NCBI GenBank assembly: GCA_914767715.1
Contig: OU612066.1
Coordinates: 24,838,283 to 24,902,282 of the forward strand
DNA length: 64,000 nt
From: Membranipora membranacea
Lineage: Eukaryota > Bryozoa > Gymnolaemata > Cheilostomatida > Membraniporidae
Direction of reading: 5' to 3'
Shown: piece by piece, positions 1,249 to 51,108 of the stretch
How the letters are laid out: each line of letters begins with the position of its first letter
How positions within the stretch are numbered: the first letter of the stretch is position 1
The notes under the pieces: model-generated
Databases searched by the model: none
Seen by the model: the letters and a program-made list of their open reading frames with translations, nothing else
What the model was told of the DNA's origin: nothing
Program-made: the position numbers and the translations under genes

Positions 1249-1538
1249 GTTTGTCATAATCCTGATTTATTTTGTCATAAACCTGATCATTTATAGGACT
1301 GATAAACACCATGAAAATGCAAAATAATTTTTTTTATGGAATTGAATAACTATTGAACTATTTTTTGCATGACCTCACCATTGCGTAAACTGAATAACTT
1401 ATGTAGACCTAACAGTCCTTGTTTTGATGTCCTTTCTTCAACCTGTCCTAAGATTATATCATGTTCACCAACAGTTTAATAAATTCCTATGAAGCTCTCT
1501 GCCGCCTAGAGATCAGACAAATAATTGCTATGTTTTAG

Positions 1539-1793
1539 GAGGTGTAACTGTAGAGGAAAAAATTAATTTGGGTCAAGCTGGGGTTTGCAGTTGGGATGAC
1601 AGAAGTGATGGCAAAACCTCAGACAAAATAAAATACTTTGGAGCAAAGATTACAGGAATTGGAAGCGAACCAAAATTTTGTCTGATCCTGATTAAAGGTT
1701 CCTGTGACAACTGCGTTATCGTATTCAATCATAAGAGTGCTAACAGTGGTCCATGTCTGTTAAACAAAATGTTAGTTAGTAATACAGATATAG
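1539..1793 (+). other. Extracellular exon, unknown domain (copy 1)
   Basis: An open 255-nt exon between a TTTTAG acceptor and a G|GTACGT donor, phase 1 at both ends. It encodes about 84 residues with four cysteines, including GSCDNC, and alternating hydrophobic strands that suggest a small beta-sandwich. I do not recognise the fold. No equivalent was found in copies 2, 3 or 4. Its 3' end lies inside a long hairpin (1783-1859), so the donor itself may come from an inserted repeat. Confidence 0.5.
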
Positions 1794-1859
1794 GTACGTG
1801 CCTAGGGGTAAAACGGGTATCATACCCGTTCCACCCCTAAGCACGTACCTATATCTGTA
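1783..1859. repeat. Imperfect hairpin overlapping a splice donor
   Basis: The stretch reads as its own reverse complement with a few mismatches; the outer arm is TACAGATATAGGTACGTGC and the centre is ACGGGTAT/ATACCCGT. Related sequence (CCCGTTCCACCCCTATACGTGCC) recurs near 2476-2498, so this looks like a small dispersed foldback repeat. The donor of the 1539-1793 exon falls within the left arm. Confidence 0.65.
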
Positions 1860-2847
1860 CCTATATCATACCCGGAACTGAATCTCGGGTTTGTTATCTC
1901 GGGTTTGGCACCTAGTTATTAGTCATACGGCTAAGAACACTACATGAAGCTTTCTTTAGGCATCTACATTTCAAAATTACTTGACAGAATTTGATGAAAC
2001 TTTGACTCAACATAGTTCCTTATTTCTAGATGATAAGTTACAAACTGAATCAAATGTACTGTGAGCTGATTGCACTAGTGATAATGAATGAATTTCCACC
2101 ATTCTTTTGTATTGTGATATCTGAAGAATGTTTTATCGGCATCAATATATGTACCGTTCTTTATACTGATGGTCAGGATTTAGACCAGCGGATGTTTTTA
2201 GACTACGCTTGCGCATTGCAATCATCAAAATCACTCACCGGTATGTAAAGAAAATAAATAACAAATAAAATTTACAAGCGTATTTGCAATATCCATCAAA
2301 TGCTGGCATGGTGACAAACCATAAACCTAATGAGGTGTCATCACCATGATCTCAATTTCGTATAGGGCCTAACTCTTTAGTTGTACCGCGTCATCACGCA
2401 AACCCGACCCGGTGCCGCCCCGGTATCGGTTTTTTCCTCAAGTGCCATACCGGACAAGGTGTCACAATTTCCGACCCGTTCCACCCCTATACGTGCCTGG
2501 AACAGAGGGAATACTTCAGAGGTCCGATTGATTTACTACTGAAGATCGAAAAACAAGTCGAGCCTGAAATAATCATCAAATTTGCAGGTAAATGGTCAAT
2601 GTAGGTTGATAATATTAAAAAATTAAAGTCAGGTGCTAAGCCTCGCTACCCTATTGAATGGTTATTTCGCTCATACAGTCAATTTACTATATCAAGGATT
2701 AGACTCGATATTACCTGCTAAATAAAATAGTGTATATATATTGCCATAGGTTCACTGACCAGGTTTGGATTTCATCAGGTTAATTATTTGCTGTGAAAAT
2801 TTACCATATTAAATTCTAAAGCAATTTTTTATTGTTATTTCTCTCAG

Positions 2848-3209
2848 TATTTCCTGTATTTCTGTTTAAAATGTCCGACTCTAATAATAATATCAATGTC
2901 AGCCGATACCCAGATGGATGCATGACCAATTATCCAACTTCAGAAGGGCTAAACTACGGTCTAATGCATGCAGCACTTGTCAATTTGCCGGCAGCAGGGA
3001 CTCTGAAAATAGACATATATCAGTTAATGAGACACTCCCAAACCTTCAGAGTTTTGCCATCTTTAGTGATTACGGTCCTTTGGATATTACCAACTATTCT
3101 GACGGAGATGGTCCACTTATATTTTTTGGACCTCAGCCAATCACACTAAAATATCAAATAGTAGAAGGATTTGAAGTCAAAGGAGAACTGTTCCATATAA
3201 AATACTCAG
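2848..3209 (+). other. Extracellular exon with conserved LNET motif, frameshifted (copy 1)
   Basis: Bounded by a TCTCAG acceptor and a G|GTATGT donor. It matches 49293-49666 (copy 4), the relic at 32925-33115, and a 3' remnant at 39860-39947 (copy 3). Shared features: a YPDG start, an AALxNLP helix-like stretch, IYQLNET with an N-glycosylation site, and an end resembling the last strand of CUB-like domains (HIKYSG). The open frame shifts by one base near 3033 (CAGTTAATGAG where copy 4 has CAACTTAATGAG), and the 362-nt length is one short of a phase-1 to phase-1 exon. The domain is unassigned. Confidence 0.6.
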
Positions 3210-3420
3210 GTATGTTCCTATGTTGCAAGTATGTACTATTATAGCGACTTGAAATGCATCTGAAATTTCAAAGATTTGCAACTGCGAAGCAACTATTTGA
3301 CTACCTAAATATAAATTTTTCTCCACTCTTTGAGGTTCTGTAATCATATTGTATGACAAGATCTGTAAACTTTACTTAACCAAGGTCCATAAAAATTAAT
3401 AATGATCGATTCTTTTTTAG

Positions 3421-3639
3421 TACCATCGTGTAACACGAGTATCAAACATCTGAATGTGCATAAATTACAGAAAGTCTATTCTCATAAATATGAAGCCCCT
3501 TGTCTGCCTGGGTTCTAACTTCGCCACAAGGTCAATACATTCAGCTGCCAAGGTCAACAATGGGAACCTTCGCTGGAATGTGTTGCTGAAAACTCAAGTG
3601 TACAAACAAGCACGACGACACAATCTGCCCCAATTACAG
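3421..3639 (+). other. CCP/sushi exon with nonsense codon (copy 1)
   Basis: A 219-nt exon, phase 1 at both ends. It keeps the four-cysteine sushi pattern with PGF, FSC and W..P..EC elements, followed by a Thr/Ser run. TAA at 3516-3518 replaces the GAG that copy 2 has directly after the GF pair. With this stop the domain cannot be completed. Confidence 0.7.
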
Positions 3640-5699
3640 GTACCACAGTTTTCTTGCTGCTTATTTTGTTTCGGTTACTCTTCTTCATTGCAAAAAGTTG
3701 CAGATTTGAAAGCTTGAAGAATCAATCAAATCATTCAATGGCATGTTATCTTTGAAATAACTGATGCATGTTTTCTTATCAGTCTTACAAATTTACATTG
3801 TACATCCTTTGCTTTTGTTGGGTTTTTCATTATTGTTAATATTATGATAATTATTTATTTTGCAACACTTTTTGGGGTTATTCAACTCAAAAAACTATTG
3901 AATTAATTTTGATAAACCTTTGAATACACATTGTGTTTTAGAAGAATAAACGCGAGATGAATTTATGAAATATTATGTAAATCTCAAACTTTCCTAAACC
4001 TAATTCTTAGACTGAAATCAATCCAAAACAAAGTAGCAGTATCTCATCGCATTTCCGAACTTCAGGAATGCATAGCCTTTCTATAAAGCTTTGGCAACTC
4101 CAACAAAGTTTACCACTTTTGTTTGCCATAAGGAAGTAATGTGACCAATGTCTAGTAAACTGTGGGAAATCTAAAAATGACCAGTCCTTTGATTGATTGC
4201 CTTGAAACTGAAATAAAAAATGTTATATTATTTGTGAGTAAGTTAGTAAAGTAGGTTTTGTTAGTTTTATTGAGAATAATTACGAAAAAAATAACCCTGT
4301 AAGCATCATGTATGAGACTGTTAATTTTGATTTCATGTGTGTCATGCTGAAATTTTTTATTCAGCATTGAAATACTCTGGTTTGCCTACAGTGAACACTG
4401 ACCGCAACTATGGTGGAAATCAGGGGCCTCAGAATGGAAATCTACTAACCGAAAATAAAGGAATAGTTCCCAATTCAACAACAACATCTGCTGCATCCAT
4501 TGTATCCATCATTGCACCAACTCTGGGTTTAATGACAGTCATAGCAATGCTCCTGATTTGGTACTGCACTATAGTGAGGTATGTGAATAAATGTGTCAGT
4601 AGTTTAATGATTTTCTCGCATAGATAAATCTGCGTAGAAAACAACATAATATGATCATTGATCTGCTACGTCATCACCTTGGCAAGTGGAATGTTGAGAA
4701 TTCAGTTTTTATCTCAAGTTTCATTTATTGCCATTTCTTGAAAATCGTTCATCTCGACTAGGTTAATTGTATTGAAATGAAGGCAAAAAAACTCAGTTAA
4801 AAAATCTCAAGAATATTCAAATCAACTCAACTAGTTAAAATATCAGCGAGATATTGCCAATTCAACCCTTCTGTGTGACAGTGTTGCACAAACTACTACC
4901 TATAGCAAGTTGTTTCAAATCGCCAATTGATACCTGGTATATCAATCACTGTGTTTTTTTATCTAGGGTCAGAGGAAAAGTGTCTGCAAACCAAATAATA
5001 ACCGCAACAGAAGCATCAGTAGAAGGTATGTGCTGGCAGTCCATGTCAGTGTATTTAATATTTCTTTTGGACCTGCCTTCGTCAATTGTTCAATTTGAGC
5101 ATTTCTCGGGCAGTTATGATGTAGTAGCCAATCATGATGCTTTCAAACTGCCAAATAAGTAGTCTTGTCGCAAGTGTTTCGTTCAGAAAAGCTGGAGAAA
5201 TTTTTAATAACATAGTCGCATCAAAGCTTGATAAATATCCAATATTTTATACTGAGGAATTTGAAGCACTGACTGCACCATCACCTGATAAAGTTCAGAT
5301 ATAATTAAGGCTTGAGTGCTTCATTAGGGTCGCCAGAATTATTGGGAACAGGACTAGCAACTCTCAGCGTAAGACCAGTGGAGACTCAATTCTATATATC
5401 TAGGCAGACACATTTTACAAAAACCGTGTTGATCAGATTGGATGTTAAAGATAGCTGTTCGGAAGCCACAAAACAAATAGCCTTGGTATAAACAAATAGA
5501 ATGGCCTACCAACAAGTCATTTAATTTTGTTATAATTATTTTATTTACCATAATTTTTCATTGGATTTGCTTTCAAACATAGTTGCGTTCTTGAAAAAAA
5601 TAGAAATGTCAAGGCATCGGTTATGAGCATAGTCAATTGAGCAGGCGGAGTTTGAAGGCTTAAAAAAATAAAATGAAACACAACTTATACAAACAAAAT

Positions 5700-6905: not shown

Positions 6906-7399
6906 ATGGCGAGGAATGCGATGAAGTCGCTGATGTGATCGAAGGACACGTTGATTCTGTGTCAGATTATGAAGTGATCGAGCGAACTGATCCATATCTG
7001 GACTACTGTGAGATAAATGAGTACGATACAATGAGCAATGTGAATCCAAGTATCTCTCAGTATGACTCCGAAGAAACTGCAAGAATTAAATCCCCTGATG
7101 TTGAGTCTGAACACAGATTAACCGAAACCTTACCACACGTTTCATCGGATTTGTTGGGATCGATTTCTAGGGAAATAAGTAAGAGAGGCATAGATTTGCA
7201 TAAAAGACAGGATTGCAATTTTTCATGTATGAAAAGACTTAATTATGTCCCAAATAGAAAGGTACCCAATTCACACCTCCAAAACCGTGCAGGGGGCCAC
7301 TGGGATTGCGAGTATTTTCCGAAAGACAGCAGACAACTGAAGCTGAAGCACAGGAACAATTCTGTAGAGGAATGTGAAACTTTACATACGGTACCATAA
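6906..7399 (+). other. Cytoplasmic ITAM exon (copy 1)
   Basis: The acceptor TGTAG precedes AT|GGC (phase 1). YEVI begins at 6968, YCEI ends at 7015 and YDTM ends at 7033. The eight-residue spacing between the two YxxI motifs is identical to copy 2. Downstream the frame runs to TAA at 7399, then continues recognisably to about 7594 with a further internal stop near 7457. The sequence after the ITAM is Ser/Thr-rich with a weakly conserved basic patch. Confidence 0.7.
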
Positions 7400-7699
7400 C
7401 CTGTTTTGTCAACAATTCCTAATATTTCTCACAGTAGCGCATCACTTCCAAAAAGTTAAGATAACACCGCCCCAGAACTAACTCATCCACCATCAGGTGC
7501 AAGCTGTGATTCGAAGGACGCTCTCAGCGTTTATCGAGTTTATACCCTTGATAAGGATGATTTTGTAGAATTTTTCTATCGTGATAATGATTAAGCTGAA
7601 AACACGATACAAAGATAATTTACACTTTCTCTATTGAGCGTGTGCGTATTTGATTGATTGTTTGATTGATTGGCCTATATGGTATATTAACTATAAATC

Positions 7700-18062: not shown

Positions 18063-18685
18063 AGGGATAATACACTTCTGATCTCTGTTTGGCAGCCAAT
18101 GGAGCACAGAAAAATGTATGTACATACATAAACTCCTTATTTGTAATTCAAAACCCCTTGTTCTGCTCAAATGTGCATTCTAAATTGTAGTTGTGCATCT
18201 CCAACAAGAAATAAGACAACTAACAGAATTGCTTGTGAACTGAAAAAAGCTGATTTTGTGAGCAGTTGTGTGCTCCTACCTCCTGGTTAGTGTCTCAATT
18301 ATACAGATACTCATGAGTACGCATGTGCAATAATGATGACCTTTGGACTTTAGCTTGTCATTTTCTAATTTTCTAACAGCCCAGCTTTACACGTTTATTA
18401 CTTATTATTATTTTTATTGGACATGCGTACTAATGAGTATCTGTATAATTGAAACACTGACCAAGAGGTAGGAGCACACAACTGCTCACAAAATCAGCTT
18501 TTTTCAGTTCCACAAGCAATTCTGTTAGTTGTCTTATTTCTTGTTGGAGATGCAAAACTACAATTTAGAATGCACATTTGAGCAGAACAAGGGGTTTTGA
18601 ATTACAAGTAAGGAGTTTATGTATGTACATACATTTTTCTGTGCTCCATTGGCTGCCAAACAGAGATCAGAAGTGTATTATCCCT
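18063..18685. mobile_element. Foldback (palindromic) element with TTAA target duplication
   Basis: Two arms of roughly 260-280 nt are near-perfect reverse complements (start AGGGATAATACACTTCTGAT; end ATCAGAAGTGTATTATCCCT) around a short centre. TTAA flanks both ends (18059-18062 and 18686-18689), the target duplication typical of piggyBac- and Kolobok-type cut-and-paste elements. No coding capacity. The same site in the left arm of the inverted duplication (near 8555) lacks the element, so insertion came after that duplication. Confidence 0.88.
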
Positions 18686-19453
18686 TTAATGACAATAAAA
18701 TTACTGAAAAAATACTGCACATTGTCACTTTGATATGGCTCCAATTATATGCTGAACACATTGGTCAATAGTGGCCAGAATCTTTCACTCAATATATTGG
18801 TTTTGACACAACCAAGTTACAATAAATAGTTCATTTATAACAATACTATGTCATTTCCATCAGTAAGAGGTTAAGCTGCTTCTCAGGATACCACCAAACC
18901 ACCAACCATAAACACTTGATTATGAAACCAATGATTACTTCAATATAACAAAAACTTAAGATGCCATCCGCTCAAAGATCAGTGAATAAAGGCTATTGGA
19001 GTATAAATCCTTGATTGAGCTAAGAGCCTTGATGATTATTCTAAGCCTCTTATTTTGTGGGAGCAGGAAATGCGCAGCTCTCTCCATCTACATAATGATG
19101 TCATTGAACAACCAATCAGATGCAGGCTAAGCAGTACAAAGGGTAAAAGATTAGCATGTCCTCAGCTTAATTATTATAATCAATCACTTAAACAAAAAGG
19201 CATAATCTGATCAACACTGAGAGCTTCCTCAAGATCACAGCTTACAGTAAAGTACAGTGTAGGATTAATAAAGACATCAATCATCCTTATACCACCTTCT
19301 AACCGTTTTATATTACGTCCATTGGAGCCAGAATCATAGTAAATATTTATACTATAATGGCTATTACAAATACTTGGAACAATCAATCAAATACACATGA
19401 GAAAGAGAAAAAGTGTAAGATACCTTCGTATCACGTTTTCAGCTTTGTCATTA

Positions 19454-22400
19454 TCACGAAACAAATTCTACAAAATCATCATTATCAAGTGTATAAACTC
19501 GGTAAACACTAAGAGCGTCCTCCGAATCACAGCTTGCACCCAATGGTGGATGAGCTAGTTTTGGGGCGGAGTTATCTGAACATTTTAGAAGTGATGTGTT
19601 ACTGGGAGATTTTTTAGGAATTGTTAACAAAACAGGTTGCACTACCTTGTGTAAAGTTTCACAATGCTCTACGGAATTATTCCTGTGCAACTCAGCTTCA
19701 GTTGTCTGATGCCTTCCGAAGAAAACTCTCGATCCTTGAGCCCCCTTGCAAGGCATTGGAGGTGTTGTGGGTATCTTTCTTTTCGAGCTGAAATGAGGGC
19801 TCTTTTTGCTCAGGAAAATTGAAACCTGTTTTTTATGCAACTCTATGCCTCTCTTACTGATTTCCCGGGAAATCGATCCAAATAAATCTGATGAAGTCTG
19901 CTGTGAGGTTAATCTGTGTTCACACTCAACATCAGGTGATTTACTCCTTGAAGTTTCTTCTGAGTCAGACTGAGAGAGGCTCGGATTCAGATTGCTCATT
20001 GTGTCGTACTCGTTTATCTCACAGTAGTCCAGATAAGGATCAGTTCGCACGATTACTTCATAATCTGACACAGAATGAATGTTCCCTTCTGTCACGTCAG
20101 CAGCTTTATCGCAATCTAAGTCAAATAAAATAATACATTGGTATGAAAATTACAAGATGATTATGATCAACATTTCTATAGTTCAACAGTAGCAGCTATT
20201 CATACCATACCCTATACACGAAAATTTATGACAGCAGGGACTTACACTACGCTTAACCTTGCAAGTAGTAAAATTCCCACTTTCATACAACTTCTTGTAT
20301 AAGTCACTGACATAAAGGCAAGACAAATATGTAGAATTTTGGTTGTAAGGTATGTATTCAGGTCGCACCACCATCTCAAAATGATTAAATGCATCATTGA
20401 ACTCTCTATTTTCATTATATTTGGCATAATCAAGGTGTTTCTGAGGACAGTTGAAATACATGACTTTTCAGCCACAAATGCGTAAGCATCTTCACAAAAC
20501 CACAACAACCAGATCATTGCATGGTATTAGTGATGATCAAGGATTAGACACCAACGATATAAAAGTTATGAAAAGAGATACAGTGGATCATAACTTGTTT
20601 AGGTCAATCATCGACAAGAAGCATTCACTATCTACAGCTGCAGCTTTGATTAATAATGAGAGGAGCAGGTCTTATATTAGTGGTTACTCTTGTACTCACT
20701 CCATCTATTCATGCTAGAGACTATCTATTAATCAAAAACCCAGTCCGGACATGTAAACGACCATACAATGAAAGACCAGGTGAGTCTCCAAGTAAAATGT
20801 GTTTGGGCTGAAAATCTAAGAGCCATGTATGAAAATCATGAAGATTGTTAGAGTTGGCGGCTCATGATAACGTCAGGACCTTAAACATCAAATATAGTAT
20901 TTACATGATGATGGTAGGGTCATTTCAAATTAAGTCCTGATTTTGACCATAGAGGTCATCAAGATTCTTTGCATTGTGTCTACATTTGTAAATAATTGTT
21001 GAAAGAATTCAAATAAAGCCAATTGATTTATCCCCGATAGCGAACATGAGAGAGATAATACAGACCTATTGAGTTCTCTGGTAAAACCTTTATGAAACTT
21101 GTAAATCTGCTAGCAGTGGTCTTGCACAAGTAGTTCAAGGACTTATACTCCCTGAGTGAATGATTTCATATTTTGTTGTTCAACAGTAAAATATCCTCGT
21201 ATTTTATTTTTAGACATGTTTTGGTTGGCTCGAACAGAGACTATAAAGTCGTATTATGGCTGCAGAGACGTTTGTCAAGAGTTCAGCTATTATGGGATAA
21301 GAATATTTTCATATCTGGATGTAAATAATCCCAGATGTACCTGCAGGCTCTGTCCAGAAGACTATTTCCGTGGTAAACAACTTTATCGGTTACTAGAACT
21401 GATTGGATGCAGAGATCTAGAAAGTATGAAAAGAAAATGGTATTTGAATAGTCGCATCATCCATTCTTTTTATTGCAAGCAATCGGACTAAACTGCTTTT
21501 CAGAAAACGATTTTTTTTAATATGAGTCTTTTTCTCAGAAAAATAAAAAGATTTTCTCGAATTCGGTTTGCAGGCTGTTTGATCTATTTAATATTGAGGT
21601 TGTTAGTCTCTTTGAATCAAATCAAATGAAAGGGTTTATACCATAGACTTGATTGTAAACCTAGACAGGACACTTTATCCAAATAAAGTGAGGCACTTTA
21701 TTGTCGCTGGTGTTACAACGCTAGATTGTGTAGTAGCAATGATGTTACAATTGATTTACCTGTCAGAACCAGGTTGTGATTTTAAGCACTTAAACCAAGG
21801 AGTACTTCTTGTTTAAACTAAAAACTTGTCTGAGCCCCCTAGACTTGTAAATTACCATAAAATAAGCACCATATCAATCATGGACAGCTGACACATACCT
21901 TGAATGGGAGTTCTCGTTTCGATGATCGTTTGGTTTGCAGACACTTCAGCTCTAACCCTAGATAACAAAAATCAAAGGGTAAAAGCATGCATTATTTGGA
22001 ACAGCTTGGAGCTAGCATAGTTAGAGCAGCTCCGTCGCGCAGGTGGTTTATTTGCTTATATAAGACGTCTTTAACCTCTCCTTATAAATATATTGTGTTT
22101 TATATATGTAAGGCAAGTTTATATAAATCAATTCAAGTTATTGAGAGCTTGCACTGTAAGCTTCAGGATTAAATTACCCTAGATGAGTAAATTAATCGCA
22201 GAAAAAAAGTTAACAATTTCGCCAATGATTGAACACTCATTCATTTAACATAAAAGCCTAGCTAATATGTGTCACCCGTTTTTTCATTTAGATTCCCACT
22301 TAAGGTAGCCAACTTTAGTTGTAAGTTGTAAAAATTAGACCAATGTCAATCAATGCGCAGACATACCATGAAAAAATCATCTTAAACTTACACCTACCTT

Positions 22401-23246
22401 ATGACAGTGTCAAGATTACACTGTAATACTAACACAAGCTAAGAAAATTGTTGTCAAGATAATCTTTCAATGCTTCTAGATCAAATTTAGTTCCAACTTT
22501 TCAGCCACACAGAACGATCATTGCGAAAACCTATCAATCTACTGAGGCATATTCACCTACCTCACTGTAGTGCAGTACCAGATCAGTAACATTGCAAAGA
22601 TGGTCAATAAGCCCAGAGTGGTTCCAATAATGGATATTATAGACGAAGTAGATATAATTGTTGAATCGGTTGTAACTGCTTTCTCAGTCGTAACTGCTTT
22701 CTCAGTCGTGGTTTGTCTAGTTCCAGTGGTTGGCTGTTCTAGACTTTGAGACTTCTGATCTCCACCATCTATGTGGTAAGTTGTCCCTGAAAGCAAGTCA
22801 AATTATTGATGGTGGCTTTACACTGTGGGAATTGTAAGATAACTGTAGTTAAAAAAGAGCTTCTAGCTTGTCATAAAAAGAACTACAGAAATATATTATG
22901 TAAATTCGGATCTACGAAAATGCAATGATTTTGTCCAAGCAGTCAAAAAACATTTTGGTTTTCAGTTTAACTTTTAGTTAGATTAAGACGGTAAATGGAA
23001 ACAGACACCGTGCAGATAAAAAGGCAGTACCTGTGCCGGGGGAAGATTCTGTTGTGTGTGTTTGAACACTCGAGTTTTGAACAATACATTCCAGCTGCGG
23101 GTCCCATTGCCGATCGTTGCAGCTGAATGTGTTAGCTTTGTGCCGAAGCTCAAACCCATGCAGACAAGAGGCTCTGTAGTTCCGATCAATTATCCGTTCT
23201 AACCCTCGCATGTTCAGATTTGCAATGTTGGTATTACAAGACCTCA
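19454..23246 (-). CDS. CCP-TM-ITAM receptor, copy 2 (3' part, open)
   Basis: Minus-strand exons: 23031-23246 (CCP), 22561-22786 (stalk and membrane helix), 21899-21957 (juxtamembrane), 19454-20115 (tail). Phases run 1-1, 1-2, 2-1 and 1-stop; 386 codons are open. The CCP has four cysteines with LHGFELR, FSC and W-DP-LEC. The stalk has repeated TTEKAVT units (likely O-glycosylated), then a helix of about 23 residues ending WYC. The tail is 220 codons: YEVI-x8-YCEI (20062-20015), then YDTM. Known for such motifs: after Src-family phosphorylation an ITAM recruits tandem-SH2 kinases (Syk, Shark), and YxxM recruits PI3K. A cell-surface immune or recognition receptor is inferred. The 5' exons were not found: the 3.26-kb duplicated block starts inside this CCP exon and lies where they should be. 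Confidence 0.78.
19997..20062 (-). other. ITAM plus YxxM motif block (copy 2)
   Basis: The motif reads SDYEVI, eight residues, YCEI, then NEYDTM. The YxxI-x8-YxxI spacing lies within the canonical ITAM range of 6-12 (usually 6-8), with an Asp before each tyrosine. The 66-nt block differs from copy 1 at one residue (V versus E after the first YxxI), while flanking tail sequence has diverged far more. Confidence 0.85.
20183..20461 (-). CDS. Possible small exon or gene in the receptor intron
   Basis: From ATG 20461 the frame encodes about 70 residues of plausible coding composition (MYFNCPQKHLDYAKY start, YVSDLYKKLYESGNF, then TTCK) before candidate donors (AAG|GTTAAG or AGT|GTAAGT). It shares the receptor's strand and intron, and lies head to head with the nested secreted gene. 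The copy 1 equivalent (about 6640-6700) has no ATG, and neither donor gives the phase-1 end needed to join the tail exon. It may be a separate gene, an unused cassette, or chance. Confidence 0.3.
   Translation of the reverse strand: MYFNCPQKHLDYAKYNENREFNDAFNHFEMVVRPEYIPYNQNSTYLSCLYVSDLYKKLYESGNFTTCKVKRSVSPCCHKFSCIGYGMNSCYC
20656..21491 (+). CDS. Secreted eight-cysteine protein nested in receptor copy 2
   Basis: Exons 20656-20779 (124 nt, CCAG|GTGAGT) and 21214-21491 (acceptor TTTTTAG) give 133 residues. The signal peptide is MRGAGLILVVTLVLTPSIHA, with cleavage likely after HA. The mature chain has Cys at about 33, 58, 62, 83, 85, 88, 107 and 129, all shared with the copy at 5700-6435, plus the invariant block CRLCPEDYFRG and an MKR-xW helix. 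Exon 1 has exactly the same length in both copies. The gene is antisense to the receptor inside the intron between juxtamembrane and ITAM exons. A 3' remnant survives in copy 3 (about 46890-46978, minus). Conservation of signal peptide, cysteines and splice site in diverged copies argues for a real protein. Family and partner are unknown. Confidence 0.82.
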
Positions 23247-23599
23247 CTAAAAATCAATCAATCATGATTACATCTGTGGTATGGTAGAGTAAGAATATGA
23301 TGATGATGCCCGTCTAAGTATACTGCAAATTAATGCTGGCTTAACCTTGCTTGCTGGAAACCACCAAACCTGATAGTAATTAAATCAAGTTTACAACTCA
23401 GAATCTGAGTCTGTATTTCTCACCCACAATTTCTTTGATAAGGTTAAGAATAGATCTGGTACTGAAATGACTTTGGTTGCTCTTGAAAGTATTTGTAGAT
23501 ATCCAAAGAATTTAATAGGTAATGAAAAACGTCAGGATTCATATTGATTGTATAATTGAAAGTTTTGTTTACCTTTTTAAATTACTTAGGTTTATTTTT

Positions 23600-26409: not shown

Positions 26410-29315
26410 ATCTAAACCCATGCAGACAAGAGGCTCTGTAGTTCCGATCAATTATCCGTTCTAACCCTCGCATGTTCAGATTTGCAATGTCGGTATCACA
26501 AGACCTCACTAAAAATCAATCAATCATGATTACATTTGTGGTATGGTAGAGTAAGAATATGATGATGATGCCCGTCTAAGTATACTGCAAATTAATGCTG
26601 GCTTAACCTTGCTTGCTGGAAACCACCAAACCTGATAGTAATTAAATCAAGTTTACAACTCAGAATCTGAGTCTGTATTTCTCACCCACAATTTCATTGA
26701 TAAGGTTAAGAATAGATCTGGTACTGAAATGACTTTGGTTGCTCTTGAAAGTTTTTGTAGATATCCAAAGAATTTAATAGGTAATGAAAAACGTCAGGAT
26801 TCATATTGATTGTATAATTGAAAGTTTTGTTTACCTTTTTAAATTACTCTGGTTTATTTTTTGTTCAAAGTGCTTTAATTCCGAATATTTGGAAGTTATT
26901 ACAGTATCCAGGTATATACAACTGTGACAACGGAATGCTATTTATCATTTATCAAAGCATGGAAAGCAAAACAACCAATTTTCATAGAAATGAACGGGAA
27001 ATAACTGAATAAACTTGCGCAAGGACATGATTGAATGATATAAGCAATTTTAAAATCCGATCCAGGGTCTAAAAGGGTCTAGAGTATGTTATCCCCCTGT
27101 TGAATTTTAACACTAACACCTAACTATCATACCTCAAAACCCGTTGGAATTCATCAGTAGAGCCCTAACTTACTCTCTAGGCTTCTGCGTACGGGGTGCT
27201 GCCCCGAACTCCGTTGGGGGGGCTTACAGCGCCCCCCCCCCCCAACCCCTCAGCTGTTTGTGTTTTGGCGCTTCGCGCCCTTGAGGCGCCGCTCCGTGGC
27301 ACAGTGTCGCCAAAACTCAGGTTTATTAAACTCCCAGGGTGAGAGTCCTGCTCCAGCTATCAACGACTGTGCCAAAGGAATGCCATTTATCATTCATCAA
27401 AGCCTTATATATACATTCAGGTATTTATTGAGTATAAAACCCCAGCAAACTATTCTCAAGGTGTTTAGGAAAGCAAAACACGACCAATTTTCATGTCAAA
27501 GCATTTTCATGGCAATGAACGAGAGAAACCTGAATACACTTGAACAAGGACATCATTGAATGATACAACCAAGTTGAAAGTGCGAAAGCCTAGGGTCTAG
27601 TAGGGTCAAGAGTATGCTATGTCCCCTTTTAGATATGAACATTAAATGATTATATTTTTTGTTCAAAGTGCTTTAATCCCGAATTTTGGAAGTTATTACA
27701 GTATCCAGGTATATACAACTGTGACGACGGAATGCTATTTATCATTTATCAAAGCATGGAAAGCAAAACAACCAATTTTCATATGAAAACATCCTCATAG
27801 CAATGAACGGGAAAAAACTGAATAAACTTGCGCAAGGACACGATTGAATGATATAACCAATTTTAAAATCCGATCCAGGGTCTAAAAGGGTCTAGAGTAT
27901 GTTATCTCCCCTGTTGAATTTTAACACTAACACCTACAGTATTACAGCCCTGGTTTGCAAGGCCAGCTACCAGTCTGCTTTACTTATCATTACAAATCGA
28001 TATTGGGCAAAGGTTGCTTAGGCAAAAACACTTTAGAGTTGCTCTGTAACAGAGGGGATCTAATACACTAGACTCTTCTACCCTTCAGTTTTCGCATTTT
28101 GAAATAAGTTTTATCATTGAAAAATGTCATTTGCCAAGTAAATTCAGTTACTTTGTTTATGGCTATCAGATAGCTTTGATATTAGTGCTGGTTGATTTTT
28201 GATTTCCTAAACTCTTAAAGAATAAATTGATGAGGCTTATACTCAACAAATACTAAACCAAAAGCTCATCGTTGTGCCAAAATTATCTTCTCTGGCATAC
28301 TTAACATATTGATGGCTATTATGTTGAGCAATCCATCAATGGGATATACAAAATATAAACAAAATTCATGGGTGATGATTGCGCATGGCTCACATATATA
28401 ATTTTTTTCTTCCAATTATTTCCAGCCCTGTTAGGCACACCAACTTTGTACCAAATTACCACTCACTCTTGAAGGGGACTTTTTTGAATTATGGACAAAC
28501 TATGGAAAATATCTATTAGAACTAATTTTTGATTTTGCCTGATTTAAAGGCTGCGCCAATACCAAAATCGTAGACTGCTCATACTGTGCAAGTCACTTAA
28601 AATTCATTGAACAATGCTTACATACTTTTCAACATTTACTTCAGTAACCATCAAATTGGGAATAAGTCTCAATTCGGTTTTGTCTCCAAATGTAATGCAA
28701 AAGGAAAAATATCTATTGCAATGCTCAGCCCTAATCTGGGGGAAAAATTGCATTTAATTCACTGAGCATTAAAAAAGGGATCTGCCCTCAATTATGCTTA
28801 TGATTATGTTGAGAAGAAATACTTTATAATTTTATCTGTAACTGCAATAGCTTGGCGGAAGAATGAGAAAGAAAGATGAAACGTCGAAGCCAGGTCTGAA
28901 CTGTCTGTCGAATGGAGGCAGAGGTTGTAGTGCAGGTACCATAGTTACATGTTCGGGTGCCATTGGGCCAGATGAAGGTAAAGAAATCTCTGCTATTACA
29001 AGAAACTTAAAGTTTGGTATAAACTTTCAAACATGCATTGTAATACTCAGATAATTCTGAAATTCAACTTCAAACATTGGTTCTAAACCGATAAAGCAAA
29101 CTCATTGTCTTTTGCTATATGTATATTAATTATTTGTGCAGAACTAGCAAGATTGCTACCCGAATATAAGAAATAGTACATTTATACTGCAATATGCTAG
29201 CAGTAGTTGGGTAGTTATTCATAATAACCTACCCATATCTACGTTGGTTTTCCTGATGAATATTAGGTATGAACTAATGATCCGATCTCACCAGCCAGGC
29301 CTTTTATATCTAAAT

Positions 29316-30655: not shown

Positions 30656-30723
30656 AGTTTTTGGATGACTTAGCACTAAATGATTATGATTCTAATCATT
30701 TAGTGCTAAGTCATCCAAAAACT
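30656..30723. repeat. Perfect 31-bp hairpin upstream of the cationic peptide gene
   Basis: Arms 30656-30686 and 30693-30723 are exact reverse complements around a 6-nt loop. It lies about 100 bp upstream of the TATA box. Perfect arms imply a recent origin or selection. Confidence 0.95.
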
Positions 30724-32924: not shown

Positions 32925-33115
32925 CCCTGATGGTACATCACAGGAAAGTACCACCATATCACATGAACAATGCTATGCAAGCGGTACTTACTAATTTGCC
33001 TGTAGCAGGAGCTGTGACTATATACATAGATGCTAGACACTAGCGAAAGTTCAGAAACTCAACATTTTCAGCTCCGAAATCTTTAATGACTTAACACAAT
33101 ATTCTGACAGCAATC
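32925..33115 (+). pseudogene. Orphan relic of the receptor LNET exon
   Basis: It aligns with 49293-49666 and 2848-3209 (AACAATGCTATGCAAGCGG, AATTTGCCTGTAGCAGGAGC, then CTCAACATTTTCAGCTCCGA) but has several stops and indels. No other receptor exon is recognisable beside it, so it marks a fifth, nearly erased copy or a dispersed exon. Confidence 0.65.
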
Positions 33116-33119
33116 GCCA

Positions 33120-35047
33120 AGTTAAGTGTTTTCTCAGTTATTTAAAGTCAAAAATGCTCAGTTGTAGTTATCTCCTCCTTACTTTTTCAAAAGCTTTCTC
33201 CTTCCTACACTTATTTATTCAGAATAACCATATTTGGTCACCTGGATCGTTAGTCAATCACCTAACTATTCATTTATGTTTTTCTGCGAAAAACTCCAAA
33301 TCTGAGGAGTGCCAAGTTCTCAAAAGCTCATGCCAAGGTTGTGAGACATTATAAAGCTAATAAAGTAGGACAAAGTAGCAAAAAAGTGTCCAATAAAATT
33401 TAAAAGTTTGCTTTGAAGACCAGCCAAGCACATTTTCTCTCAGCAAAAAATCCACCAAACCTGCCATGAGCCGCTGCAGACTGGTTGGAAGATAGGCTTT
33501 ATTGTGTAAGGTGGATAGATTTTAACGCATCTCAAGCTCATTATTCATCTTAAATGATTTCCAAGTATTCATAAATACTCGTAAATACTCGTATATTATT
33601 CATCTTTAATGACTTTCAAGCGCTCACAAATACTTATCTAATTGAATCTGTATTTTCCGAATTGAATTCTTTGATAAACTTGCATATATCAAAAACTTGT
33701 TTACGGAAAGTTGACTCTGGGAAATCAATTGCTACTATTGCTACAGGTCTTGGATATTTGAGGTGATGTAGTCTGTATAGCTCAAAGATTATAGATTGAG
33801 GCTACATATCAGAGTGATTAACTGGTCTGCAAATAGTTTTCCAAAACAGATTGTCCTTTTTAAGGGATGCATTCGAATTAGGTGAAATAATGACATCAGC
33901 CCTTGACATACTAACTGAAATTGGCATTTGAATCATTTCAAATGATATTCCAACATTTTTTAGCCTTTGATGACTGAGAATCTTTAATTGTGATCAACAG
34001 ACGTGCCTCTTGTTTACTCTATAGGAAGTGAAACTGACAGATCAGGTTCATGACCTCAGCTGAGGCAAGAAATGTGAGCAAGAATTCTCTGCCTATCAAT
34101 TACTGCTATCAACAATGAGATGAAGAACAAGGCGATTAAGAAAGAAATGGTAGGGGAGGCAAAATTCCGAGGCTAGTCAAAAGCAGCAATAGGAGGGGTG
34201 CTGTTACTAAGCAATTTTAAGGCATTAAATTAGCAAATAGAAATCCCAAAAGACCTGATTCAGACATGAAATAATCAATTATATCATTTTTGGACCACTC
34301 CATTCAGCTTTCTAAGGGAGGCAAGGCCTCCCTGCCTCCCCTAGAAATATGGGCCTGCACCAGCCAGGCCACCAGCACTGACCAAAACTCTGAACTAAGA
34401 CCGCACTTTGGCCACAGATTGCTTACCTGTCATTGTTTTCTTATCCTCCTTCCATCTACGTAAGAGCGCAAGGTAATCACTAAGCAAATATTGTTGGATT
34501 TGAGTAGTCCCAATTCATTTCATTCATAACATAGACTCCTTGGCAAGTTGGGTGAAAGGGATATGATATTGTACGATAGCATAGTACAATAGCATAGTAC
34601 AATAGCACAATGACAGTGTGTTGATTGTAGGCATTTGCTTGCGTTATATTTTGTTGGTACAGCTCTATTTATCCTAAAAGTAAATGGAGGGAATTCTATA
34701 GCAATTCGGGAAGATAATTCCTACAAACGATTTCTTGTTCGTCTTGAACAAAATTTGTAGTGAACATGGTTTAGATTTGGCTTTTTCAGTGGATAGGCCA
34801 CTGTTCAATGATAGAATTTTCAAAATACACCCAAATGTTTGAGCTTAAATTTTACACGAATGTCATCCCAATATTTTAATTATTGAAAAACACAAATGTA
34901 ATTATGCTGGATGCGTATAGGATTATGATAATTGTGTGTCTGGAGGGCTCACCCCTAATAACACACAGTGAGCTGTATCTGCATGGTCGACCTTGGTGTA
35001 TTTATCACCATTTAGGAATTGCAGTCCTGAAATAACCATAAGGTCGT
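33120..35047. other. Intergenic with short tandem repeats
   Basis: Small direct repeats at about 33540-33645 (TCATCTTAAATGA / TCATCTTTAATGA and AAATACTCGTA) and at 34565-34610 (GCATAGTACAATA units). No gene recognised. Confidence 0.45.
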
Positions 35048-39859: not shown

Positions 39860-40250
39860 TGAGTTGGTCCTACCATTATCACATTGCATTATCGACCAGA
39901 GCAGGAATATGATATAAAAGATGAACTGATCCATATCAGGTATTCAGGTATGTATTTTATGTTCTATTTTTGTCCTAGGTGTCCAAGGGGCTTAAAATCG
40001 ACTTGATTGACTGGAGGCTGCACCCCAAGGATTTTAGTGTTACGTAGCATCCGAGGATTTGAGCGTTTGAAAAGTTCCAAGATTGAGCAAGTGTGAAGCA
40101 ACCGAATTACTGGAAGTCAGTTGCAACACACATCAATCATTGGCAAAGAATATTCGGTCTACCATTACACTGTCATGGTTTTGATAATGTGCAAGTTTTG
40201 ACGCATTTTGATTAAAATAATTCACAATAACTTAATCTACCATCATTCTA

Positions 40251-40809
40251 TCACAGAGTAAGGATATACAGAGGGGACACTTCAATGATAGTAATAGTGC
40301 TTGCGGTTTTTAGCCAGTGGGGGAAATATTCAATCTCGATATCTGCCAAATTTCGATAAATATATAATATAATATGAAAATTATAGTTTCAACGGAGATA
40401 ACCCATGCAGACAGTGCTACCTTTGTGGTTTGGGTCAGTACACCAACTTTTCCTAATTTTGATGACCAGCCATCTATCAATTGTCTCATGTAAATCTATA
40501 TGAATAAAACTGCTTTTAAAAACCTAGATTACTCATAGCCTATGTATCCTAGCAAAAAATTACAAGAATATGGTGTAGAGCTTGAAGGTTGGACATTTCA
40601 AAAAATGTGAAAAACAGTCACTAGGATTAATACAGAATGAATTATGACCCATCAAAGGTAGCTATGTCTGCATGGGTTATCTCCATTGTAACTAATATAA
40701 TTATCGAAATTTGGCAGATATCCAGATTGAATATTTCCCCCACTGGATAAAAACCGCAGACACTATAACTATCATTGAAGTGTCCCCTCTTCATATCCTT
40801 ACTCTGTGA
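40251..40809. mobile_element. Foldback element in a copy 3 intron
   Basis: Long terminal inverted repeats of about 170-190 nt (TCACAGAGTAAGGATATxxAGAGGGGACACTTCAATGATAG at the left; its complement at the right) around a unique centre. A perfect 5-bp direct repeat TTCTA flanks it (40246-40250 and 40810-40814). No coding capacity. Lies between the LNET and CCP exons. Confidence 0.85.
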
Positions 40810-41659
40810 TTCTATGTTCCTATTATATTATACCATCATCATGTTCTTACTCTACCATACCACACAAGTAATCATGATTGATTGATTTTTAGTGAGGTCT
40901 TGTAATACCAACATTGCAAATCTGGACATGCAGGGTTAGAATGGGAAACTGATCGGAACTACAGAGCCTCTTGTCTGCATGGGTTTGAACTTCGGCACAA
41001 AACACATTCAGTTGCAACGATCGGCAATGGGACCCCCCGCTGGAATGTATTGCTCAAAACGCGAGTGTTCAAACACACACAACAGAATCTTCCCCGAACA
41101 CAGGTACTGACTTTTATCTGCACAGTGTCTGTGTCCATTTAACTTTACCGTCTTATTATAACTACAAGTTTAACTGAAAACCAAAATGTTATTGGACTGC
41201 TTGGATAGAATCATTGCATTTTCCTAGACACCAAATTTACAACTATTTCTGTAGTTTTTTTTTTATGACAGGCTAGAAGCTCTTTTTCACTGCAGTTGTC
41301 TTACAATTCCCACAGTGTAAAGTCATCATCAATAATTTGACTTGCTTACAGGGCCAACTGACCGCATAGACGGTGGAGATCAGGAGCCTCGAAGTCTAGA
41401 ACAACTCACCACTGGAACTAGACAAACTCCGACTGAGAAAACAGTTACTAACGATTCAGCAATAACATCTGCTGCTTCTATAATATCCATCATTGCACCA
41501 ACTCCGGGCTTATTTACAGTCATTGCAATGTTACTGATTCGGTACTGCACAAAAGATATTCCACTGTCTGTCATAACAAGGGTGTAAGTTTAAGACGACT
41601 TTGTGAAGGTATGTCTGCGCATTGATTGATATTGGTCTAAATTTTACAATTTTTAACTT

Positions 41660-46110: not shown

Positions 46111-46884
46111 ACCATAGTGCAAGCTCTCAATAACTTGAAAAAAATCAATATATTTGCCCTCCATATATAATATAAATATATATTATAAGGAGAGGTTAAA
46201 GATGTCCTGTAAGCAAATAAATCACCTGCGTGACAGAGCTGCTCTAACTATGCTAGTTGCAAGCTGTTCAAAATAATGCATACAATTATCCTTTGTTTTC
46301 TGCTATCTAGGGTTAGAGTTAAAGTTTCTGCAAACCGAGCGATCATCGAAACGAGAACTCCCATTCATTCAATTCCCTTTCCATGATATATGTGGTGCTT
46401 ATTTTGTTGTAATTTAAAAGTTTATTAGACACATATTTTAGCAGGGTGTGGGGGTGTCGGGCAGGGGGGGGGGCAAAAGTCTAGGGGGCTCAGACTAGTA
46501 TTTTAGTTTAGGTGCTTAAAATCACAACCGGGTTCTGACGGGTAAATCAATGGTAACATCATTGCTACTACATAATCTAGCGTTGTAACACCAGCGACAA
46601 TAAAATGTCTCACTTTATTTAAATATAGTGTCCTGTCTAGGTTTACTATTAAATCGATGGTATAAACCCTTTCATTTGATTTGATTCAAAGAGACAAACA
46701 ACCTCTATATTAGATAGATCAAACAGCCTGCAAACCGAATTCGAGAAAATCTCTTTATTTTGCTGTAGGTAATTTGTCATTGGTGATTTGTTAAAATTAC
46801 AAATGCTTTAACACCAGGCCCCCTAAAATGTACATTCAGCTAAAAAGACTTGAATTTTAAAAGTAATTGGGCTCATGAGAAAAA

Positions 46885-46981
46885 CACTCCTATCAAAAAA
46901 AAGCATTTTCTGAAAAGCAGTTTAGTCCGTTTGCTTGCAATAAAAAGAATGGATGATGCGACTATTCAAATACCATTTAGG
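46885..46981 (-). pseudogene. Remnant of the nested secreted gene in copy 3
   Basis: On the minus strand it matches the last part of the 20656-21491 gene and its 3' flank (shared TGGTATTTGAATAGTCG and ATTGCAAGCAA-CGGACTAAACTGC). It joins directly to receptor tail sequence (GGAGTAAATCACCTGATGTTG), which in copy 2 lies about 1.49 kb away. Confidence 0.88.
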
Positions 46982-48076
46982 AGTAAATCACCTGATGTTG
47001 AGTGTGAACACAGATTAACCTCACAACATGCTTCATTGGATTTGTTGGGATCTATTCCCCGGGAAATAAGTAAGAGAGGCATATATTTTCATAAAAAAAC
47101 AGGTTTCAAATTACCCCAGCATGAGAGGACCTCATTTTAGCTCGGAAAGAAAGTTACCCACAACACCTCCAATGCCTTGCAAGGGAGCTAGGGGATTGAG
47201 AGTTTTTTCCGAAAGACAACAGACAACTGAACTGCTGACGTGCACAGGAATAATTCCGTAGAGCATTGTGAAACTTTACACACAGTAGTGCAACCTGTTT
47301 TGGTAACAATTCCTCAAAGTTCTCACAGTAAAACATCACTTCCAAGAAGTTCAGATAATCTGCCCCAAAATTAACTCATCCACCATCGGGTGCAAGCTGT
47401 GATTCGGAGGATGCTCTCAGTGTCTATCGAGTTTATACACTTGATAATGACGTATTTGTAGAATTTCTATATCGTGATAATGATTAAGCTAAAAAAGGGA
47501 TACAAAGATATCTTGCAATTTTTCTACTGAGCGTGTGCTATTTGATTGATTGTTCCAAGCATTTGTATTGACCTATATGGTATATTTACTATTATTCTCC
47601 ACAGGTCATAATATCAAACGATCTGGCTAGGAAGGTGGTATAATGATGATTGATGTCTTTATTAATCCAGCACTGTACTTTACTGTAAGCTGTGATATTA
47701 AGGAAGCCCTCAGTGTTTATCAGGTTATGCCTTTTTTGTTTAAGTGTTTAAGGTAATGTCAAAGGCCGATCCGAATATCAACATATCATATACCGTTGGA
47801 GAGCTGCCGAGCTACTGAAAATGAATACCTGAACAAAAACTTGATTAAATGACGTTGTGTCATTTTAGGGAGGAAATGAGGCAGAAAACGCTTTTTTTTC
47901 AATGTAGATGGAGGAGTCAAATTAAGTGCAAGAAATTTTAAAACAGGTGGAATGTATAGTTAGAGATTGTGTTCATCGTAAAATTTCATTTTCTTTGATA
48001 TATGACAAGTCTAAATTGACTTTTTACGTCACGCCATACAATTCATTTTTTTTGTGAAGCCATGAAAATATATGAA

Positions 48077-48583: not shown

Positions 48584-51108
48584 GCTTATAGGCTGGAGTT
48601 TTCACACAGCGGCATCTTCTTAGTTCTGACCCTAAAGCTTCTCTCATTTCCGACTCTTTGTTGCGCCTATGCAAGATATGTGAGTAGTACTGTACAATAT
48701 TTGAGCAATTTATATATTTTTATTTTCCATGATTTTTTTTAATTTCTCACAGAGCTTCTTTCTTCCTATCTTGTATATATATTGAACATCGAGAGATTAT
48801 TTATATAATTAGATGGCTTTAATTGGTTGACCTTAAATACATTTCATGAATAATTGCAGGTTGATTGTCAGAATTGTCAAAGGTTTTACAGTACTTTTGG
48901 CACTTTACAGATTTTTATCTGCGCAAGGATTATCATAATCCTGATTTATTTTGTCATGAGCCTTAACACCATCATCATCGGCAGATAAACACCAAATGAA
49001 TTATTCAATGAAAACAATCGGATTGATCTCATGATTGTCTTAGCTAAGTGATGATTGTAGAACTTGACTTGCTGTTTATGCCCTTTCTTCAACTTCAACG
49101 ACCTCGGACCTTGCCTCCCCTGCCATTTTTCTAAAGCACTGCCCTGAATGTTATTACACTGGTGGAAATTTTTAGGCCGTGAGAGAGGATCCGCAACCAG
49201 TATCAATTTCATATAACTCCTCCTATCGCTGATCGATTCGCTTTCGAAATAATAATATATTGCAGTGATGTTTTAGTGTTATTTCTTTTAAGTGTATCCC
49301 ATGTTGCTGCTTACAACGTCAGGCTCTAAGAGAAAGAGTACTATTGATACCAGTAGTTACCCAGATGGATATATCACCAATGATCAAACCTTTGAAGGGT
49401 CAGACAAAAAGGTTGCACTAAACAATCTTATGCAAGCAGCTCTTATTAATTTGCCAGTGACATCAACTGTGACAATGCACATTTATCAACTTAATGAGAC
49501 GTTAGCAAAAGTTAACACGTTCGAACTCTCCAACTATGAAGAGTTTGTCGACTTATAAAACCGTTCTGACAGAAATCCGGTAGTAGAACATTATGGCCAA
49601 CACGATATCAAGCTGCTTTTTCAGGATATGATGTGAAAGATGAAGTGATCCACATCCGATATTCAGGTTCGTATTAATTCTACTGATTTTGTCACAGGGT
49701 CCAAGAAAGAGCAACTGTGAAACTATATTACTGTCTGTCCAGTGTCAGTCACATATACTATATTAAAACCACTGTAAATTTTCACTTCCAGCATGTTGTT
49801 TAAAATTTGTTGTTTTGATAAACTTTGACACAATGTAGTTTACGTACATATTACAACAAATTTTATTTACCTTCATTCTATGCCCAATGTATGAGATACT
49901 GTTATCATACCTTTACATTACCACACTTACTAATGTAATCATGATTGATTGATTTTTATTGAGGTCGTGTAATACCAACATTGCAAATCAGACCATGCAA
50001 GGCTTAGAGAGGGTAACTGATCGGAGCTACCGAGCCTCTTGTCTGAGCTTCGACACAAAGCTCACACATTCAGCTGCAAGGATCGGCAATGGGAGCCACC
50101 GCTGGAATGTATTGCTCAAAACTCAACATACACGACAGAATCTACCCCTGATACAGGTACTACAATTTCATATGTACTGATATACTTTACGTCTTTCTGA
50201 GATGAAAGGAATTGATTCACAACTTTAAATGAGTATTCTGATATATATACATAAAATATTCTGTAAAACTTCGGCTTCCAACTACCATAGCCTTAGAGGA
50301 AAGCGTATGTGTACAAATAATAGACATTATAAATACTTTGAATTGCTTACAGAGACAACTGACGGCATTTATGATGGAGATCGGAGGCCTCAGAATAATG
50401 GAACCACGAAAACATCTGCCAACTCAACAATTACATCTGCTACCTACATAATATCCATTATTGGAGCGACTCTGGGCTTATTGACAGTTGTTCCAATGTT
50501 GATGACTTGGTATTGCGCTTTATTGAGGTATGAGAACAATCTTCAGTAAAAAATTAGAACTGCATTACTCTAGAAGCATCAAACTGTTTTATTAATAGCA
50601 ATTTTTCGCCTGGTTTTGCCTTAGTTTTACCAGCTTCCTGTTGAAGGTAAAGGCAACTATTGCCATTTATCTTGATAAGACAAACCATAAGCTTTGCCCG
50701 GAGGAGTCAACGCCCCGGATTAGCTGACGACCTCTACCAGTTGTATACACTGGAATGTGACTATCAGTGCATCCTGGTCACCGTGCACTACGTGAATGAT
50801 ACGTGAAACGGATTATGATGCCTTATAGTCTGATCTAGCCTTTATGATGGTACGGGTATATGTGCACATCGGTTGATACTGGGGCTGAGTTTTATCACTT
50901 TTAACTTGAATTCCACCACTTTGCTAAAGAGTCTCTGCACAACAGTTTGGGCTTGGGTATCTGTGGCAATGGTGATGAAACTATGCTCAAACACACTGTT
51001 TCAAATAAATTTTATAAGAGATTTAACCACCCTGTTATTGTTTTGTTAGGTTAAAAGCCAAAGTCTCTGCAAACAGAATACAGGCCAAAGGAGGAGCAGC
51101 AATACAAG
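48584..51108 (+). pseudogene. Receptor family copy 4, decayed and lacking the ITAM exon
   Basis: Exons: 48584-48679 (leader, ends AT), 48860-48927 (signal peptide, split ATG), 49293-49666 (LNET), about 49966-50156 (CCP), 50353-50527 (stalk and helix), 51050-51108 (juxtamembrane, 59 nt). Lesions: the signal-peptide donor reads GGAT where copy 1 has GGTT; TAA in the LNET exon near 49556 plus a frame break; CCP acceptor AG changed to AT, and a 10-nt deletion removing the HGF codons. Membrane and juxtamembrane exons are open with correct phases. Homology to the copy 1 intron continues to about 51230 and then stops, with no tail exon. Confidence 0.75.

What the first reader, a model, noticed from the sequence alone, without database searches (positions are those of the whole stretch)
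19454..23246. CCP-domain receptor with a bona fide ITAM in a non-vertebrate genome
The tail exon encodes YEVI-x8-YCEI, each tyrosine preceded by Asp, directly followed by YDTM. This is an ITAM plus a PI3K-type YxxM on a single-pass protein with a sushi ectodomain and an O-glycan-like stalk. ITAM signalling through Syk or Shark is well known in vertebrates and in a few invertebrate receptors (for example Draper), but a tandem family pairing sushi and ITAM is not one I know. It suggests an invertebrate activating immune or self-recognition receptor.
Basis: partly seen in the sequence, partly recalled or inferred. Interest (0 to 1): 0.9.

Follow-up and report, generated by a model that had tools for sequence, protein, structure and literature searches.

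The report
Bryozoan sushi receptors with ITAM tails
A colonial sea mat carries a large family of receptor-like genes whose inner tails hold the two-tyrosine switch that vertebrate immune receptors use, although the particular copy flagged here looks like a shortened, decaying one.

Summary
Four minus-strand exons (23246-19454) splice in one open frame into sushi, Ser/Thr-rich stalk, membrane helix and a 220-residue tail with YEVI-x8-YCEI. The window lies on chromosome 2 of the bryozoan Membranipora membranacea. The tail exon belongs to 77 loci, clustered on C2, C9, C3, C5, C8 and C4. In 27 aligned loci (of 28 read) the ITAM frame is nearly invariant (first Tyr 26/27; both Ile and second Tyr 27/27), in the slowest-changing stretch of the exons compared (pN/pS 0.12, untested). 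Five environmental tails keep it. Better-preserved copies carry two further ectodomain exons, the second weakly CUB-like. The flagged copy lacks both and shows no visible constraint (12 nonsynonymous, 1 synonymous private changes): probably a 5'-truncated remnant. Best reading: self-contained ITAM receptors for immune or self/non-self recognition. Both tyrosines also fit the ITIM consensus, so an inhibitory output stays open. Transcripts, signal peptide, Syk/Shark partner and ligand are not shown. Closest published: Botryllus fester co-receptors.

The parts
23031..23246 (-). copy B: sushi/CCP exon with the start of the stalk (finding)
   Evidence: AG/GT borders and open frame; 4 Cys + Trp invariant in 11 aligned exons; profile matches factor H CCP E=1.8e-7
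22561..22786 (-). copy B: Ser/Thr-rich stalk and membrane-helix exon
   Evidence: hydropathy maximum 2.33 over 19 residues
21899..21957 (-). copy B: juxtamembrane exon (59 nt)
   Evidence: AG/GT borders, frame kept; homologous exon in some paralogues
19454..20115 (-). copy B: cytoplasmic tail exon, 220 aa, to TGA
   Evidence: 77 loci in the genome including this one
20015..20062 (-). ITAM YEVIVRTDPYLDYCEI in copy B
   Evidence: frame conserved in paralogues
26411..26509 (-). partial second copy of the sushi exon (first 33 profile positions) in the tandem duplication
1535..1810 (+). copy A: first part of domain-1 exon, interrupted by an insertion (rest at 2482-2586)
   Evidence: c2 coordinates minus 149982
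2847..3208 (+). copy A: domain-2 (CUB-like) exon, frameshifted
3420..3626 (+). copy A: sushi exon, split by an in-frame TAA
4397..4573 (+). copy A: stalk/membrane-helix exon
4971..5024 (+). copy A: juxtamembrane exon
6914..7561 (+). copy A: tail exon with ITAM YEVIERTDPYLDYCEI; two in-frame TAA further down
39866..41554 (+). copy C: domain-2 remnant, frameshifted sushi, membrane exon
46309..47451 (+). copy C: juxtamembrane exon and tail remnant that begins after the ITAM (ITAM part missing)
49292..50519 (+). copy D: broken domain-2 and sushi exons, membrane exon; no tail found in the window
32960..33132 (+). weak domain-2 fragments
   Evidence: E 7e-6 and 2.5e-3

Best explanation
The family encodes single-pass receptors: N-terminal domain 1 (six Cys invariant in five aligned copies), a Cys-less, perhaps CUB-like domain 2, one sushi module, a stalk, an uncharged membrane helix, and a tail of about 220 residues with its own ITAM, Y-E-x-I-x2-T-D-P-Y-L-D-Y-x2-I. 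Shown: exon anatomy, open long exons in better-preserved copies, the multigene family, and retention of the ITAM. Inferred: a ligand clusters the receptor; a Src-family kinase phosphorylates both tyrosines; a tandem-SH2 kinase of the Syk/Shark kind docks and starts an activating response. No adaptor would be needed, because the motif is in the receptor itself. The faster-changing ectodomain and the tandem array fit recognition of variable targets, microbial or of other colonies. The flagged copy B is most likely a 5'-truncated, no longer constrained member.
Against: No transcript was seen. No signal-peptide exon was found in any copy. The sushi donor of the best C9 copy would be GC and its juxtamembrane exon is tentative. 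Other exceptions: stops or frameshifts in domain 1 of c2 and L044 and domain 2 of c11, an odd tail start in L046, a frameshift before the ITAM in c3, missing exons in c1, c4 and c8. No Syk/Shark gene was identified: the kinase search did not complete, and the one tandem-SH2 locus checked resembles SHP2 most. The whole TDPYLDY linker is conserved, more than an ITAM requires. Only one ectodomain window exceeds pN/pS 1 (domain 1, 1.25, not tested).
Confidence: 0.5

Rival explanations
1. The conserved stretch is not a Syk-type ITAM but two close ITIM-like sites, or one longer docking site with three tyrosines, for another phosphotyrosine reader such as the tandem SH2 of SHP2, so that the receptors inhibit or tune rather than activate.
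For: Tyr1 has Ser at -2 in 23 of 27 and Tyr2 has Leu at -2 in 26 of 27, so both fit [SIVL]xYxx[ILV] (recalled). The linker TDPYLDY is as invariant as the ITAM tyrosines. A tandem-SH2 gene most like SHP2 (PTPN11) is present.
Against: Tyr-to-Tyr distance 12 is ITAM-like, while the SHP2 tandem SH2 usually takes more distant pairs (recalled). An acidic residue before Tyr1 (22/27) and Tyr2 (27/27) is ITAM-like (recalled).
Confidence: 0.3
2. Allorecognition: the array is a fusion/rejection locus of this colonial animal, with variable ectodomains that read neighbours.
For: Colonial host; clustered multigene array with copies on both strands, broken and open copies side by side; ITAM/ITIM motifs are reported for Botryllus and Hydractinia allorecognition candidates (PMC12065747, passages).
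Against: No polymorphism, linkage or fusion data were examined; receptor families also expand for pathogen defence in solitary animals (recalled).
Confidence: 0.15
3. Phagocytic or pattern-recognition receptor, working like Draper/CED-1 with CUB-like and sushi modules for microbes or debris.
For: CUB and sushi modules recur in complement proteins; Draper signals through an ITAM (both recalled).
Against: No ligand or cell-type evidence; domain 2 as CUB rests on a low-confidence model.
Confidence: 0.25
4. The flagged copy B itself is a pseudogene: a 5'-truncated duplicate with no start or signal peptide, so nothing at 19454-23246 works as a receptor.
For: Domain-1 and domain-2 exons not found upstream on its strand in the window; tandem duplication edge in the sushi exon; 12 nonsynonymous to 1 synonymous private change over tail, sushi and membrane exons, against 7:9 for copy c12.
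Against: All four exons are open with good splice sites; an unrecognised first exon could exist; the counts are small, and copy c9 also has 9:2 (c9 has a frameshifted tail).
Confidence: 0.75

Closest known systems
Fester co-receptors (FcoR) of Botryllus schlosseri (PMC12065747; listing, abstract and passages seen)
   Same: Clustered multigene family in a colonial invertebrate; type I membrane proteins with a sushi domain; long tail with tyrosine motifs (ITIM, hemITAM, YxxI/L/V core)
   Different: FcoRs are described with one V-type and two C2-type Ig domains and with ITIM or hemITAM; here Pfam found no Ig domain, the tail has a two-tyrosine ITAM-type motif, and the host is a bryozoan. No sequence comparison was made.
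Hydractinia Alr receptors (named in PMC12065747; the original paper is not held)
   Same: Allorecognition candidates with ITAM/ITIM motifs in an invertebrate
   Different: Ig-superfamily ectodomains (recalled); no sushi module (recalled)
Draper / CED-1 (recalled)
   Same: Invertebrate single-pass receptor with an ITAM in its own tail, acting through the Syk-like kinase Shark
   Different: EGF-like repeats, no sushi module, not a large family
CUB-sushi proteins such as C1s (C1s CUB2-CCP1-CCP2 is listed), MASPs and CSMD (recalled)
   Same: CUB domain next to sushi modules
   Different: Proteases or large multi-repeat proteins; no ITAM tail (recalled)

Membership tests
ITAM-bearing receptors | Two YxxI/L units 6-12 residues apart | tested here: met
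   Y-x2-I-x8-Y-x2-I in 26 of 27 aligned tails; L045 has Ser for the first Tyr; a 28th read tail, window copy C, lacks this part
ITAM-bearing receptors | Motif on the cytoplasmic side of a membrane protein | tested here: inconclusive
   Tail exon lies 3' of a membrane-helix exon in one open frame with matching splice sites; no transcript and no signal-peptide exon
ITAM-bearing receptors | Motif kept by selection rather than chance | tested here: met
   Lowest pN/pS of the windows compared, 0.12, broken copies included and no significance test; shuffles
ITAM-bearing receptors | Phosphorylation by Src kinases and binding of Syk/ZAP-70/Shark | not testable with these tools
   Kinase search PF07714 asked 18 times, never answered; SH2 search gave 44 matches, none assigned to Syk
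ITIM-bearing receptors | [SIVL]xYxx[ILV] (recalled) | tested here: met
   Ser at -2 of Tyr1 in 23/27, Leu at -2 of Tyr2 in 26/27, Ile at +3 in 27/27 for both; a sequence match only, binding not tested
Sushi/CCP domain | Four Cys, Gly-Phe after Cys2, Trp before Cys4 | tested here: met
   Invariant in 11 aligned exons; factor H CCP E=1.8e-7; Pfam matches 2 of 11, the window copy not among them
CUB domain (domain 2) | CUB fold or profile match | tested here: inconclusive
   No Pfam CUB match in 9 of 9 members, no CUB among 2 weak PDB profile hits; low-confidence model (pLDDT 52.8); Foldseek none at E<=0.001; CUB chains lead by Z but all Z are under 8
PI3K-recruiting YxxM receptors | Conserved YxxM | tested here: not met
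   Tyr in 20 of 27, Met in 21 of 27; Tyr absent in L022, L027 and in the samples from C3, C5, C8, C9-7.09Mb and C4-24.2Mb
Botryllus FcoR | V-type and C2-type Ig domains beside the sushi domain | tested here: inconclusive
   No Ig match by Pfam at E up to 10; folds not settled
Botryllus FcoR | ITIM, hemITAM or YxxI/L/V core in the tail | tested here: inconclusive
   Each tyrosine taken alone fits the core and ITIM patterns; taken together they form an ITAM frame
Allorecognition receptor | Polymorphism linked to fusion/rejection | not tested
   No population or second-haplotype data were examined

The most novel reading that the evidence does not exclude
This is the receptor side of bryozoan allorecognition: a 77-locus family of CUB-like/sushi receptors with a built-in ITAM, a third colonial lineage that joined fast-evolving, unrelated ectodomains to the vertebrate immune tyrosine switch, after cnidarians (Ig) and tunicates (Ig plus sushi).
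Probability: 0.15. Interest if true: 0.92.

Novelty: new variant of a known kind. Interest (0 to 1): 0.66.

Why it matters
The listings I searched showed no published ITAM receptor family in Bryozoa (open-licence papers only). If expressed, the family gives a colonial lophotrochozoan a concrete set of candidate immune or self-recognition receptors, and makes it testable whether ITAM/ITIM signalling was taken up again and again for self/non-self decisions in colonial animals.

Tried and rejected
A tunicate host was my first guess from the fester resemblance. Rejected: AGA/AGG fall on several COI positions that I recall as conserved Ser (position 29, which I recall as Gly in most animals, speaks the other way), and scaffold lengths match the M. 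membranacea assembly. Structure prediction of the single sushi exon was poor (pLDDT 49) and not used. Domain 1 found no Pfam or credible PDB relative. A spliced 621-residue C9 protein found no homologue at E<=0.001 among 5302 candidates. Signal-peptide exon hunts gave no shared candidate (one search used a wrong option and returned nothing). The copy at C2:24745965-24751500, first taken as intact, has a frameshift ahead of its ITAM (read by eye). In the structure list about 24 of 50 rows are not CUB proteins and score alike, and the two best rows are not CUB, so the CUB reading stays weak.

Not obtained: the PF07714 kinase search and the ectodomain protein search of the whole genome did not complete. 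So it is not known whether the C3, C5, C8 and C4 tails sit behind the same ectodomain. Searches were also unanswered, but the same requests were answered later.
Full report
WHERE. The window is G000:C2:24838283-24902282. C1 (41,072,641 bases) and C5 (29,963,023) have exactly the longest-scaffold and N50 lengths printed for Membranipora membranacea tzMemMemb1.1 (part 1 of 3 of PMC10290214 read), and the mitochondrial contig is 14,741 bases against 14.7 kb. The host is a colonial cheilostome bryozoan.

THE OBSERVATION. The four exons on the minus strand have AG/GT borders and join in one open frame to a stop at 19454, 386 residues as joined. The order is sushi, Ser/Thr-rich stalk, membrane helix without a charged residue, 59-nt juxtamembrane exon, and 220-residue tail with YEVIVRTDPYLDYCEINEYDTM. 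A bare ITAM pattern is expected by chance in this much sequence (19 seen, 10.8 expected in shuffles, maximum 21). The form with Asp before both tyrosines is not (10 seen, 0.01 expected), but those ten are copies of one exon; 114 of 20,000 shuffles of the tail show the bare form and none the Asp form.

THE FAMILY. The tail exon has 90 matches in the genome (a lower bound by the tool's own note), which merge into 77 loci, 75 with the ITAM span inside one match: 19 on C9 at 13.35-13.60 Mb, 13 on C2 at 24.70-24.89 Mb, 7 on C3, 6 on C9 near 7.07 Mb, and smaller groups. I had letters for 28 of the 77: 13 in the C2 array, 8 others with flanks, and 7 short stretches chosen one for each of 7 clusters or lone loci. 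One of the 28, window copy C, has lost the ITAM part and was left out of the alignment. In the other 27: first Tyr 26 (Ser in L045), Ile 27, Thr 27, Asp 27, Pro 26, middle Tyr 27, Leu 26, Asp 27, second Tyr 27, Ile 27. The Tyr of the YxxM is kept in 20 and its Met in 21; L022, L027 and the samples from C3, C5, C8, C9-7.09 Mb and C4-24.2 Mb lack the Tyr. Five environmental proteins with this tail (E 2.6e-38 to 1.4e-77, 5 of 1529 candidates) all keep YE[VF]I-x2-T[DE]PYLDYCxI, and two of them lack the YxxM Tyr.

SELECTION. Over C2-type copies the window that covers most of the ITAM has pN/pS 0.12; the other windows of the five long exons run from 0.21 to 1.25. Over all 20 long tails the ITAM has 0.20, the rest downstream 0.51, and the part upstream 0.71. 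These are pooled counts that include broken copies; no test of significance was made. Two further slow blocks in the tail (around SSDLLGSISREISKRG, 0.24; the C-terminal SVYRVYTLD, 0.39) and a proline stretch TPPMPC are unexplained.

THE FLAGGED COPY. No domain-1 or domain-2 exon was found upstream of copy B on its strand within the window. Its sushi exon holds the edge of a 3.2-kb tandem duplication. Its private changes are 12 nonsynonymous and 1 synonymous, against 7 and 9 in copy c12 and 9 and 2 in copy c9, whose tail is frameshifted; the counts are small. I take it as a truncated remnant with an ITAM that has not yet decayed; its VRT in place of the usual ERT is one such change. The other window copies are worse: A has an insertion, a frameshift and stops; C and D are fragments.

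MECHANISM. Shown: anatomy, family, ITAM retention. Inferred from vertebrate and fly ITAM biology (recalled): clustering, Src-family phosphorylation, docking of a Syk/Shark tandem SH2, activation. Not found: the kinase. The one tandem-SH2 locus I could read (C9:12.13 Mb, second SH2 exon) is most like SHP2 (best E 9.5e-28). Each tyrosine also fits the ITIM consensus (recalled), Ser at -2 of the first in 23 of 27 and Leu at -2 of the second in 26 of 27, so an inhibitory or tuning output is a serious rival. The distance of 12 between the tyrosines and the acidic residues before them speak for the ITAM. The invariance of the linker TDPYLDY goes beyond ITAM rules and may mark a third tyrosine site.

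KNOWN SYSTEMS. The nearest published system I found is the fester co-receptor family of Botryllus (53 loci, sushi and Ig domains, ITIM or hemITAM; PMC12065747, abstract and passages), which the authors tie to allorecognition, together with ITAM/ITIM-bearing Hydractinia candidates. The present family differs in host phylum, in its N-terminal domains as far as Pfam shows, and in its two-tyrosine motif. I therefore call it a new variant of a known kind. Searches for bryozoans with ITAM or allorecognition listed no paper on such genes (listings, and passages of PMC11686985).

Noticed in passing
31013-31435 (+): ORF with a signal-peptide-like start (MTKFAIMAIIAAVCLTVIVAQ), a twice-repeated VVVASGVRPVVDIGGDFGPPPK unit (69-bp period) and an Arg-rich end GPPPRRRFNPFRRFILRRLFNPFRRSK: looks like a cationic antimicrobial-peptide precursor.
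   Followed up: no
9246-10058 (+): ORF ending in a P2X7-type intracellular domain (PF20478, E 8.6e-5, 23 bits, just under the cut-off of 23.5), with partial DNA repeats at about 10.1-11.3 kb.
   Followed up: partly
54259-55962 (+): Long ORF with an F-box (PF12937, E 4.6e-8).
   Followed up: partly
37156-38241 (+): ORF with a weak DUF7869 match (E 7e-4, under the cut-off), possibly transposon-derived.
   Followed up: no
23152-29630: 3.2-kb tandem duplication, 98.4% identical, with shorter inner repeats.
   Followed up: partly
1783-1859, 8600-8678, 18059-18689, 30656-30723: Near-perfect inverted repeats (91-97%) like small mobile elements; the first lies at the edge of the insertion that splits the domain-1 exon of copy A.
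   Followed up: no
tail exon (window 19454-20115 and paralogues): Two further conserved tail blocks, around SSDLLGSISREISKRG and SVYRVYTLD, and a proline motif TPPMPC, of unknown partner.
   Followed up: no
G000:C9:12128490-12131610: Tandem SH2 exons; the second is closest to SHP2 (PTPN11).
   Followed up: partly
P0008: A metagenome contig encodes domain 2 at 98% identity to a C2 paralogue, so sea-mat DNA appears to be present in public environmental data.
   Followed up: no
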